Below are positions 16,480 through 31,324 of a stretch of 64,000 bases of DNA, in pieces (position 1 is the first letter of the stretch; each line of letters begins with the position of its first letter). The position numbers were made by a program, and so were the translations under genes. Below the pieces are notes generated by a model, which saw nothing but the letters and a program-made list of their open reading frames with translations, did no database searches and was not told where the DNA came from. The stretch is from Chloroflexota bacterium (GTDB lineage Bacteria > Chloroflexota > Anaerolineae > Anaerolineales > Villigracilaceae): positions 248,001 to 312,000 of the forward strand of contig JAIOOU010000004.1 of NCBI GenBank assembly GCA_021414245.1, in the 5' to 3' direction.

Positions 16480-16508
16480 TTGACGCATTATCCCCTTGCA
16501 TGTATAAT
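16480..16508 (+). promoter_or_regulatory. Near-consensus sigma70 promoter TTGACG-N17-TATAAT driving the signalling cluster
   Basis: Hexamers and 17-nt spacer read directly; first gene starts at 16553. Confidence 0.8.
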
Positions 16509-16552
16509 TTTCGAACCTATCCCTACATCAAGGGGTAACCAGAGGAAATGAT

Positions 16553-17359
16553 ATGGCCCTGCGCGGAAATTTACGAGATTTTACCGTCACCCAATTGCTT
16601 AATCTTATTAACCTTGCAAGCAAAACCGGTACGCTGGTGGTGGATGGGGCATCGGAGCAGGCCTATATATCGTTCCGTGATGGAAAACTTGCCTACGCCC
16701 GGATCGGCCAGGAGGATGGAAGCCTGGCCGCTGTTTTGCATAAGGCCAATAAGATCAATGCCAATCAATACCGGGCGATCGCGGATCGTGCAGGCCAGAT
16801 GACTGACAAGGAACTCGGCCTGCTTCTTATTAATGCAGGATATGTTTCACAGGAAGACATCCTTTTAAATCTGCAGGGGTATTTTACGGAAGTCGTCCGC
16901 AGGTTGTTCACCTGGGTGGAGGGCATCTTCCGTTTTGAGAACGAAATGCTTCCCCCGGAAGACCGCATCAATGTGCGGCTTGACCTTGAAAACATTATTA
17001 TTGAAGGCTCCCGCCAGCTGCGCGAGCTGGAGCAGCTGCAGGACGAGATCCCAAGCCTGGATATGGCCCTTAAGTTTACGGAACGTCCACTGACCAATGT
17101 GAATTTGAGCGTGGATGAATGGAAAGTGGTGAAGTTCGTAGATCCAAAGAACACCATGCGCCAGATCGCAAGCACGAATAAATTAAGCGACATTGAAGTC
17201 CGCCGGATCGTATATGGACTGCTGCAGGCGGGACTGGTGGAAATGGCGCGTCCCGCAGGGGCTGCGCCGATCCCCAATCCCAAGCAGTTCCCAACCCAGG
17301 ACAAGGACGAACAGAAATCATTGATCAATAAATTGATCGGCCGAATTCGCACAATGTAA
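16553..17359 (+). CDS. DUF4388 (PATAN-like) protein with C-terminal winged-helix-like region
   Basis: MALRGNLRDFTVTQLLNLINLASKTGTLVVDG...AYISFRDGKLAYAR; C-terminal TMRQIASTNKLSDIEVRRIVYGLLQAGLV. Confidence 0.8.
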   Translation: MALRGNLRDFTVTQLLNLINLASKTGTLVVDGASEQAYISFRDGKLAYARIGQEDGSLAAVLHKANKINANQYRAIADRAGQMTDKELGLLLINAGYVSQEDILLNLQGYFTEVVRRLFTWVEGIFRFENEMLPPEDRINVRLDLENIIIEGSRQLRELEQLQDEIPSLDMALKFTERPLTNVNLSVDEWKVVKFVDPKNTMRQIASTNKLSDIEVRRIVYGLLQAGLVEMARPAGAAPIPNPKQFPTQDKDEQKSLINKLIGRIRTM

Positions 17360-17387
17360 CACACTCAGGGTTAGAAGGATAGAAATT

Positions 17388-17921
17388 ATGCAAACGGTCA
17401 AAATGGTAGTAACGGGTCCATTCAGTGCTGGCAAGACGCAGTTCATTCAGTCTGTCAGCGAGATCGATGTCGTTGCCACGGAACGAAAGATCACGTCGGA
17501 AGAGGAGCGTTCCGTCAAATCGGCAACCACGGTTGCGATGGATTTCGGCCGCATTACCGTGGACGAGGACCTGGTACTTTACCTGTTCGGCACACCGGGC
17601 CAAAAGCGTTTCGACTTCATGTGGGAGATTCTCTCGGAGGGTATGTTGGGCTTCATTGTCATGGTGGATAGCACCCGGCCCGAAACCTTCCGCGAGGCGC
17701 GTTCCATCCTTGAGACCTTCCGGGCCTATGCCCCCACGCCCTTTGTGGTGGCTGCAAACAAACAGGATGCGGAAGATGCCTGGGAGATCGAAGATGTTCG
17801 TCATGCCCTGCGCCTGGACAGCAATACCAAGCTGTTGCCTTGTGTGGCGACCAATCGTGAAACTGTAAAATCTGTATTGCTTGAACTGCTGTACAGCATC
17901 ATTAAAGAAATGGATTCCTGA
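17388..17921 (+). CDS. Small Ras-like GTPase (COG2229/CvnD-like)
   Basis: TGPFSAGKTQFI (P-loop), LFGTPGQKRFDFM (G3), AANKQDA (NKxD, G4). Confidence 0.9.
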   Translation: MQTVKMVVTGPFSAGKTQFIQSVSEIDVVATERKITSEEERSVKSATTVAMDFGRITVDEDLVLYLFGTPGQKRFDFMWEILSEGMLGFIVMVDSTRPETFREARSILETFRAYAPTPFVVAANKQDAEDAWEIEDVRHALRLDSNTKLLPCVATNRETVKSVLLELLYSIIKEMDS

Positions 17922-30143: not shown

Positions 30144-30154
30144 TTGGAGATTGA

Positions 30155-30529
30155 ATGGCAAGGATCTTGATAGCAGAAGACGAACCCGATATTCGTGAAC
30201 TTGTGGCCTTTACGTTGCGATTCGCGGGCCATGAGGTCACCACTACGTCCAATGGTGAAGAAGCCTTGCACATGGCATCGGAGATCATTCCGGATATCAT
30301 CCTTATGGATGTCCGCATGCCGAAGATGACCGGATATGACGCCTGTCGTGCCATGAAGGCCGACCCTGCCCTGCGGGACATTCCCGTCGTCTTTTTGTCC
30401 GCAAAAGGACAGGACTCTGAAATTCAGACCGGGTTGGAAGCGGGTGCCGAGGAATACCTGCTTAAACCCTTCGCCCCATATCAGCTTACGGAGCGGGTCA
30501 AGGCAATTCTGGCAAAATTTGGAAAATAG
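30155..30529 (+). CDS. CheY-like single-domain response regulator
   Basis: ILIAEDEPDIRELV, DIILMDVRMPKMTGYDACR, VFLSAKG, YLLKPF. Confidence 0.93.
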   Translation: MARILIAEDEPDIRELVAFTLRFAGHEVTTTSNGEEALHMASEIIPDIILMDVRMPKMTGYDACRAMKADPALRDIPVVFLSAKGQDSEIQTGLEAGAEEYLLKPFAPYQLTERVKAILAKFGK

Positions 30530-30535
30530 GATTAA

Positions 30536-31324
30536 ATGAGCGCGATCATTCTGGATGGTTCGATGGTGCATTACGAGGCGTTGGGACGTGGCCGTCCCAT
30601 TGTCTTCCTGCACGGCTGGGTCGGATCATGGCGTTACTGGATCAATGCCATGCAGATCGCGTCCACCTCCTTCCGGGCCTACGCCATCGACATGTTTGGT
30701 TTTGGCGATACCACGCGCGACCCCTTGCGCTATTCCCTGGACCGCCAGGCCGACCTGATCAATCGGTTTCTCGAGGAAATGGGGATTGGCAAGGTGGCCT
30801 TGATCGGGCATGATCTGGGCGCGCTGGTGGGCATGTCCTTTATACGACAATGGCCGCGCAGTGTGGACCGTATCATGGCCATCAACTGTCCAATGGATTA
30901 CGACTCGGTCAGTTCCCGCCTGCGGACATCCACCATGCCCGAATTAGTGGACTGGTTGAGTTCCCGCACCCCTGAAGCCATCGCCGCCCTTTCAGACGCA
31001 TCCAAAGCGGACCCGCAAGCTGTTGCGGCCTCTCTCGCAGGACTCCAGTCGAATCATCTCTTTACGGATGTCCGCAGCCTGGGTGTGCCCAGTCTGTTCG
31101 TATACGGGCCGAACAGCCCGGCCGTCATTACCCCCTCCCAGGAAAAAGCCGATACTCTGCCCAATCACATGCATCAGGTCAACCTGGAAGGCACCGGTCA
31201 CTTCCCCATGATTGACAATCCCAACCAATTCAACCGCCTGATGACGGATTTCCTGGCCCTGGACTCTGGGGCAAGTCCGCGGGAATTGCAAATGAAGGAA
31301 GAGTGGAAACGCAGAGTTCGCTGA
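30536..31324 (+). CDS. Alpha/beta hydrolase with Asp at the nucleophile elbow (GHDLG), epoxide-hydrolase/haloalkane-dehalogenase-like
   Basis: IVFLHGWVGSWRYW, ALIGHDLGALVGMSF, GTGHFPMIDNP; paralog of 17949-18746. Confidence 0.88.
   Translation: MSAIILDGSMVHYEALGRGRPIVFLHGWVGSWRYWINAMQIASTSFRAYAIDMFGFGDTTRDPLRYSLDRQADLINRFLEEMGIGKVALIGHDLGALVGMSFIRQWPRSVDRIMAINCPMDYDSVSSRLRTSTMPELVDWLSSRTPEAIAALSDASKADPQAVAASLAGLQSNHLFTDVRSLGVPSLFVYGPNSPAVITPSQEKADTLPNHMHQVNLEGTGHFPMIDNPNQFNRLMTDFLALDSGASPRELQMKEEWKRRVR

What the first reader, a model, noticed from the sequence alone, without database searches (positions are those of the whole stretch)
16480..31324. Ten-gene signalling/lipid-like cluster: PATAN/DUF4388 - GTPase - hydrolase - V4R - beta-helix - AAR-like reductase - receiver/GGDNF - multi-GAF kinase - receiver - hydrolase
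Seen: a near-consensus promoter (TTGACG-N17-TATAAT) precedes ten co-oriented genes with very short gaps or overlaps (ATGA at 18743-18746, TAA|ATG at 20711/20712, gaps mostly 7-70 nt), ending at a terminator at 31327. A terminator also precedes the promoter. Established: DUF4388 proteins and COG2229 GTPases occur in bacterial signalling; V4R domains are linked to small hydrophobic ligand sensing; AAR-type reductases act on long-chain acyl groups. Inference: the set could sense or make a lipid/aldehyde-type ligand and relay it through the GTPase and two-component arm, for example in surface or motility control. I do not recognise it as a named system.
Basis: partly seen in the sequence, partly recalled or inferred. 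Interest (0 to 1): 0.85.

Follow-up and report, generated by a model that had tools for sequence, protein, structure and literature searches.

The report
Bacterial Ras-like GTPase signalling operon
Ten neighbouring genes in a bacterium of the phylum Chloroflexota form one real, deeply conserved operon built around a Ras-like molecular switch, a small-molecule-binding protein whose family is related to a eukaryotic vesicle-traffic factor, and a large sensor kinase, with a probable fatty-aldehyde-making enzyme added on; the combination has no name that I could find and can be tested in cultured relatives.

Summary
All ten genes exist, in one direction, behind one near-consensus promoter that is conserved in 68 of 69 relatives and is the only conserved promoter in the set. 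Gene order holds across more than 15 families of the class. In 150 genomes the parts are nested: GTPase, a roadblock protein encoded elsewhere, and V4R co-occur almost perfectly (GTPase/roadblock: 69 both, 3 discordant); the beta-helix gene is a subset of these; the short AAR-like reductase occurs only in genomes with the beta-helix. So the heart is a DUF4388/PATAN - MglA-type GTPase - roadblock - V4R module, to which a GAF-kinase arm and a lipid-chemistry arm attach. V4R has the MopR/DmpR zinc site and the H-NOX/TRAPPC3 fold. Type IV pilus control is not supported (no PilT in this genome, no association). Best reading: a conservon-like G-protein circuit with a hydrophobic-ligand sensor. Biochemistry, ligand and output are inferred.

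The parts
16407..16443 (+). Terminator hairpin of the preceding gene, upstream boundary
   Evidence: 15-pair stem followed by TTTTTATTAT
16480..16508 (+). Operon promoter TTGACG-N17-TATAAT
   Evidence: 11/12; conserved in 68/69 relatives with TATAAT invariant, spacer 17-18; only conserved promoter of the ten genes
16553..17359 (+). Gene 1: DUF4388/PATAN domain, then a C-terminal region that looks like a winged helix
   Evidence: Pfam DUF4388 9.8e-26 at 4-159; C-terminal winged helix is inference from residues 181-235
17388..17921 (+). Gene 2: small Ras-like GTPase, MglA family (GTPGQ-type G3)
   Evidence: P-loop GPFSAGKT, G3 GT-GQ and NKxD residues invariant in the orthologs that cover them
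17949..18746 (+). Gene 3: alpha/beta hydrolase with intact Ser-Asp-His triad
   Evidence: S93 41/44, D212 44/44, H240 44/44
18743..19363 (+). Gene 4: stand-alone V4R ligand-binding-fold protein with MopR-type zinc site
   Evidence: Pfam V4R; AlphaFold pLDDT 94.5; Foldseek to H-NOX, MopR, TRAPPC3; C162/E186/C189/C197 in 27/27
19434..20711 (+). Gene 5: degenerate nucleotidyltransferase-like domain plus GlmU-like left-handed beta-helix; probable scaffold or pseudoenzyme
   Evidence: GlmU catalytic His aligned to Gln305, invariant in 40/40
20712..21797 (+). Gene 6: AAR/PigE-N-like acyl-thioester reductase (predicted to make aldehydes)
   Evidence: C292 and the glycines of GATGAIG invariant in 29/29
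21794..22723 (+). Gene 7: receiver plus degenerate GGDEF (GGDNF)
   Evidence: receiver Asp62 invariant; E of GGDEF missing in 49 of 50 orthologs
22740..30143 (+). Gene 8: giant histidine kinase, N-terminal membrane segment, about 11 GAF, PAS, HisKA, HATPase_c
   Evidence: phospho-acceptor His2247 present wherever the kinase end is covered (42/42); membrane segment read from the sequence
30155..30529 (+). Gene 9: stand-alone receiver
   Evidence: Asp52 17/17
30536..31324 (+). Gene 10: alpha/beta-hydrolase-fold protein with non-conserved nucleophile (Asp here, Gly in most orthologs)
   Evidence: G 10, D 3, S 2, A 1 of 16
31327..31351 (+). Operon terminator
   Evidence: different hairpin-plus-T sequences at the same place in several relatives

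Best explanation
A single-transcript G-protein signalling operon that works like an actinobacterial conservon but is built from other parts. Core: an MglA-type GTPase (gene 2), its roadblock regulator (encoded at a second locus in this genome, G000:C6:683871, next to a second V4R and a second receiver-pseudoGGDEF), the PATAN protein (gene 1) as GTPase partner or effector, and the V4R protein (gene 4) as a zinc-stabilised receptor for a hydrophobic small molecule. Input arm: the membrane-anchored multi-GAF kinase (8) phosphorylates the receiver (9) and the receiver-pseudoGGDEF (7), which cannot make c-di-GMP and acts as a docking protein. Ligand arm: the AAR-like reductase (6) and the active hydrolase (3) make or remove an acyl- or aldehyde-type molecule; the degenerate beta-helix protein (5) and pseudo-hydrolase (10) act as scaffold or ligand-binding parts. 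Proposed flow: ligand on V4R plus the phospho-receiver state sets GTP/GDP on the GTPase through roadblock; the GTPase signals through PATAN. Shown: gene content, order, promoter, co-occurrence, catalytic residues, V4R fold prediction. Inferred: every interaction, the ligand, the output.
For: Gene order conserved in dozens of genomes of more than 15 families. Only gene 1 has a conserved promoter. Co-occurrence in 150 genomes: GTPase/roadblock 69 both, 1+2 discordant; V4R/GTPase 67 both, 4+3 discordant; short AAR 46/46 inside gene-5 genomes. Roadblock lies next to GTPase, with V4R close by, in some genomes (L055, L163, L201, L204), which ties the two loci together. 15 of 20 genomes that have the GTPase but not gene 5 still have V4R within 2.5 kb of it. 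Chloroflexia carry the same parts at separate loci. GTPGQ motif of MglA groups 2-5. V4R zinc ligands 27/27 and fold. All genes under strong purifying selection.
Against: No interaction, expression or ligand data. The roadblock gene is not in the window. In Chloroflexia the DUF4388-GTPase pair and the V4R-beta-helix-kinase genes are apart, so a shared pathway is inferred from co-occurrence, and the counts are not corrected for phylogeny. Kinase, receiver and V4R can be missing from the operon (family f11 keeps only genes 1-2-3-5-6), so the kinase arm may be replaceable.
Confidence: 0.6

Rival explanations
1. A lipid or aldehyde biosynthesis operon: reductase, hydrolases and beta-helix acyltransferase make a membrane lipid or secreted product, and the GTPase/kinase genes merely regulate it.
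For: Reductase catalytic Cys and NADPH motif invariant; first hydrolase triad intact; genes 1-2-3-5-6 persist without the kinase arm in family f11.
Against: The reductase is the most dispensable layer: absent in L171, L172 and the Chloroflexia clusters while signalling genes stay; GlmU catalytic His replaced by invariant Gln in gene 5; gene 10 nucleophile lost; no carrier protein, aminotransferase or deformylating oxygenase among the ten genes.
Confidence: 0.17
2. A polarity/motility controller acting on type IV pili, as PATAN proteins and MglA do in cyanobacteria and Myxococcus.
For: PATAN response regulators are linked to pili in cyanobacteria (PMC7690835); MglA groups 1 and 5 occur near PATAN genes (PMC4316618); Chloroflexia that carry the parts include known gliders (recalled).
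Against: No PilT in this genome; PilT in 4 of 52 gene-5 genomes and 8 of 98 others, odds ratio 0.94. Other motors were not tested.
Confidence: 0.1
3. A persistent gene neighbourhood without one pathway: a kinase-receiver pair, a GTPase module and enzymes that share a promoter for cost or dosage reasons.
For: Sub-blocks separate in Chloroflexia and f11.
Against: Nested, near-perfect co-occurrence also across unlinked loci (GTPase and roadblock), which sharing a promoter cannot explain; V4R and receiver-pseudoGGDEF pair again at the roadblock locus.
Confidence: 0.13

Closest known systems
Actinobacterial conservons (CvnA-CvnB-CvnC-CvnD)
   Same: Operon with a histidine-kinase-type sensor, a Ras-like GTPase, a roadblock partner and a small protein with helix-turn-helix character; GAF proteins as accessory sensors (PMC8510531, PMC13343842).
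   Different: DUF4388/PATAN in place of DUF742, roadblock usually encoded at a second locus, a true His-phosphoacceptor kinase with receivers, and V4R, beta-helix and AAR genes that conservons are not described to have.
MglA/MglB polarity module (Myxococcus, Thermus)
   Same: Small GTPase plus roadblock regulator; PATAN genes near some MglA genes (PMC4316618).
   Different: Group 2-5 type active site and not group 1; no pilus link found; V4R partner.
V4R sensory domains of MopR/DmpR/PoxR
   Same: V4R fold and near-identical zinc-ligand pattern (three Cys, one Glu; PMC7264223, PMC10715001).
   Different: Stand-alone protein, no AAA+ or DNA-binding domain; the phenol-anchoring His is not at the aligned place.
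TRAPP core (TRAPPC3/Bet3) and Asgard TRAPPC3-like proteins
   Same: Bet3 fold match (6aq3, TM 0.62 by target) in a system that also holds a Ras-like GTPase and a roadblock protein (PMC10933270).
   Different: Equally close to H-NOX and MopR; no longin subunit seen; exchange activity unknown; probably shared ancestry of the fold only (PMC2253512).
Cyanobacterial AAR and prodigiosin PigE reductase domain
   Same: Whole-length homology, catalytic Cys and GXXGXXG.
   Different: No deformylating oxygenase and no aminotransferase beside or fused to it.

Membership tests
MglA family small GTPases, groups 2-5 | Single-domain GTPase of 160-240 aa with GTPGQ in G3 | tested here: met
   177 aa; G, T, G, Q of GTPGQ in 38/38; criterion from PMC4316618
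[quoted passage not shown]
   Not in the window operon; roadblock is on contig C6. Met in relatives L055, L163, L201, L202, L204
Conservon (cvnABCD) | Histidine-kinase-like sensor plus Ras-like GTPase in one operon | tested here: met
   genes 2 and 8
Conservon (cvnABCD) | Roadblock gene in the operon | tested here: not met
   present at a second locus
Conservon (cvnABCD) | DUF742 protein | tested here: not met
   No DUF742 match; DUF4388 instead
MopR/DmpR-type aromatic sensor | Zinc site of three Cys and one Glu | tested here: met
   C162, E186, C189, C197 in 27/27
MopR/DmpR-type aromatic sensor | Phenol-anchoring His and Trp | tested here: not met
   PoxR His aligns to a hydrophobic position, Trp aligned in most; no invariant His in A3
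H-NOX heme sensor | Conserved heme-ligating His | tested here: not met
   No invariant His in 27 orthologs, fold similar
Acyl-ACP reductase (AAR) | Catalytic Cys (C294) and GXXGXXG NADPH motif | tested here: met
   C292, G160/G163/G166 in 29/29; criterion PMC9743570
Acyl-ACP reductase (AAR) | Aldehyde-forming activity on acyl-ACP or acyl-CoA | not testable with these tools
   needs an enzyme assay
GGDEF diguanylate cyclase | GG(D/E)EF active-site motif | tested here: not met
   GGDNF here; E at that place in 1 of 50 orthologs
GlmU-type acetyltransferase | Catalytic His363 of the beta-helix domain (role recalled) | tested here: not met
   aligned to Gln305, invariant in 40/40
TRAPP complex | Bet3-fold and longin subunits forming a Rab exchange factor | tested here: inconclusive
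   Bet3-like fold yes; longin not searched; activity not testable

The most novel reading that the evidence does not exclude
V4R and roadblock together form a ligand-gated exchange or activating complex for the Ras-like GTPase: a bacterial counterpart, in logic and in folds, of the TRAPP core that activates Rab GTPases, with the ligand supplied by the operon's own acyl/aldehyde chemistry. This would be a co-inherited V4R-roadblock-GTPase circuit across the Chloroflexota.
Probability: 0.2. Interest if true: 0.9.

Novelty: new variant of a known kind. Interest (0 to 1): 0.68.

Why it matters
It defines a recurring bacterial G-protein signalling module (PATAN, GTPase, roadblock, V4R) with predicted partners in trans, in a phylum where almost no signalling is understood. 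It makes two open questions directly testable: what prokaryotic V4R proteins sense, and whether the V4R/Bet3 fold was already coupled to Ras-like GTPases and roadblock proteins in bacteria.

Tried and rejected
Type IV pilus control: PilT search in 150 genomes gave no association. Active diguanylate cyclase: motif degenerate. GlmU- or LpxA-type acyltransferase for gene 5: catalytic His not kept; its structure model is only moderate (pLDDT 79), and whole-length Foldseek matches have high rmsd. Heme sensor for V4R: no conserved His. Phenol sensor: anchor His missing. Second transcription start inside the operon: no conserved internal promoter. Literature searches for this gene combination found no description; the library holds open-licence papers only, so absence is weak evidence. 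The greedy gene caller missed genes under antisense ORFs; replaced by the homology-first caller.

Full report
WHAT WAS CHECKED. The window lies in a 3.87-Mb genome, 98% complete; its nearest named relatives are Anaerolineales MAGs of the phylum Chloroflexota.

ONE TRANSCRIPT. Upstream of gene 1, 68 of 69 aligned relatives have TTGACG (62), TTGACT (5) or TTTACA (1), a 17-18 nt spacer and an invariant TATAAT, median 40 nt before the start; shuffled sequences give >=10/12 in 2.3%. With one uniform window for all genes, >=11/12 sites precede gene 1 in 76 of 96 loci and gene 2 in 1 of 99, and no other gene at all. Median gaps between neighbours over about 100 loci are -4 to 93 nt. Hairpin-plus-T-run sequences that differ between species follow gene 10. 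This is comparative support for a single operon; no RNA data were available.

CONSERVED NEIGHBOURHOOD. The order 1-2-3-4-5-6-7-8-9-10 recurs across more than 15 families of the class and in almost every long enough locus of 80 further Anaerolineales-type contigs. Upstream flanks vary, so the block has a real left edge. Family f11 and L054 keep only 1-2-3-5-6. L171 and L172, of the same order as the window, lack the reductase.

NESTED LAYERS. In the same 150 genomes of the class: GTPase 70, roadblock 71 (69 shared), V4R 71 (67 shared with either), gene 5 in 52 (51 with V4R, 51 with roadblock, 50 with GTPase), short reductase in 46, all 46 with gene 5 (tallied). Fisher p-values are below 1e-18 but are inflated by shared ancestry. 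GTPase and roadblock are within 4 kb in only 7 genomes, so their co-occurrence is not a by-product of linkage. In genomes without gene 5 the module stands alone as DUF4388-GTPase-(roadblock)-V4R (L201, L203, L204, L205) or DUF4388-GTPase-roadblock (L202).

THE SECOND LOCUS. In the window's genome a roadblock/LC7 gene (G000:C6:683871-684239; L076:8598-8969) is followed directly by a second V4R and a second receiver-GGDEF gene. The arrangement is conserved: 12 of 15 fetched relatives show roadblock beside V4R and/or receiver-pseudoGGDEF, with a promoter of its own, TTGACA-N16/17-TAAAAT, in the nearest relatives. In L055 (same class) and L163 (another class) the roadblock sits inside the main cluster, after the GTPase, which links the two loci.

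OUTSIDE THE CLASS. In 24 further Chloroflexota genomes gene 5 is present. In those fetched, mostly Chloroflexia, it lies in V4R - gene 5 - receiver-pseudoGGDEF - GAF kinase, or the same without V4R. A 61-65% identical GTPase and a 68% identical roadblock lie elsewhere in those genomes, the GTPase directly behind a DUF4388 gene in the four looked at; only G288 lacks the close forms.

WHICH PARTS LOOK ACTIVE. GTPase: P-loop, GTPGQ and NKxD residues conserved; GTPGQ marks MglA groups 2-5 (PMC4316618). Hydrolase 3: triad intact. Reductase 6: Cys292 and the glycines of GATGAIG invariant, equivalent to AAR Cys294 and PigE Cys296 (PMC9743570, PMC8341465); best solved relatives are a PigE-type aminotransferase fusion (4ppm) and AAR (6jzq). 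Receivers and kinase keep their phospho-acceptors. LOOK INACTIVE: GGDEF of gene 7 (49 of 50 without the E), gene 10 nucleophile (Gly in 10 of 16), gene 5 (beta-helix homologous to GlmU, hhalign 97%, but the catalytic His aligned to an invariant Gln; nucleotidyltransferase-like N-domain seen by fold only, without a G-rich NTP loop). All ten genes are under strong purifying selection (dN/dS about 0.03-0.16 where it could be computed; synonymous sites near saturation, so rough): degenerate does not mean decaying.

V4R. The model (pLDDT 94.5) matches H-NOX, MopR/PoxR and TRAPPC3 with bound palmitate. Zinc ligands C162, E186, C189, C197 are invariant in 27 sequences, in the MopR/DmpR order with near-identical spacing (PMC7264223). 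The phenol-anchoring His is missing and no His is invariant, so neither a phenol nor a heme sensor is likely.

MECHANISM. The parts resemble a conservon: kinase-type sensor, roadblock, HTH-type protein, Ras-like GTPase (PMC8510531). The V4R protein adds a candidate ligand receptor directly at the GTPase. I infer that ligand-bound V4R and the phosphorylated receivers act on roadblock and GTPase, and that DUF4388 carries the output. That the reductase and hydrolase set the ligand is plausible (about 0.35) because the short reductase was found only in genomes with this cluster; the core clearly exists without it. Pilus control is not supported.

NOVELTY. Ras-like GTPase/roadblock circuits, conservons and PATAN-MglA neighbourhoods are known kinds; the co-inherited PATAN-GTPase-roadblock-V4R module and its ten-gene extension are, as far as the held literature shows, undescribed. 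Hence a new variant of a known kind.

LIMITS.

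Noticed in passing
G000:C6:683871-686400 (L076:8598-10495): Unlinked second locus roadblock/LC7 - V4R - receiver-pseudoGGDEF, conserved in the class; probable partner of the window's GTPase.
   Followed up: yes
window:16459-16467: A block (ACAAGTCTG here, ACAAGAGTG in most close relatives) is conserved about 12-20 nt before the -35 hexamer in near relatives but not in distant ones; possible activator site.
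   Followed up: partly
L060-L071, e.g. L061:9103-11289: AAR-like paralogs of about 720-880 aa with an uncharacterised N-terminal part and a C-terminal membrane segment, about 42% identical to gene 6 and outside the cluster.
   Followed up: partly
G000:C6:189861 (L077:9811-10416): Third, distant V4R gene in the same genome, beside a GNAT acetyltransferase and an alpha/beta hydrolase (Hydrolase_4).
   Followed up: partly
window:19434-20711: Public records name orthologs of gene 5 'multidrug transporter'; nothing in the sequence supports this, an annotation error that has spread.
   Followed up: no
window:31382-31410: TTGACA-N17-TATACT (11/12) just behind the operon terminator, promoter-like for the next unit (solute-binding protein and ABC transporter genes).
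   Followed up: no
window:11755-13744: Two adjacent proteins, each with GNAT matches in both halves (tandem acetyltransferase domains).
   Followed up: no
window:44972-47188: Fusion of a zinc-type alcohol dehydrogenase and a GFO/IDH/MocA oxidoreductase in one 738-aa protein.
   Followed up: no
window:20712-21797: Synonymous divergence of the reductase gene is about half that of most neighbours in two of three comparisons; unexplained.
   Followed up: no
L159:14008-15294: A cytochrome P450 gene two genes upstream of V4R in a Chloroflexia locus; some conservons also carry P450 genes, may be chance.
   Followed up: no
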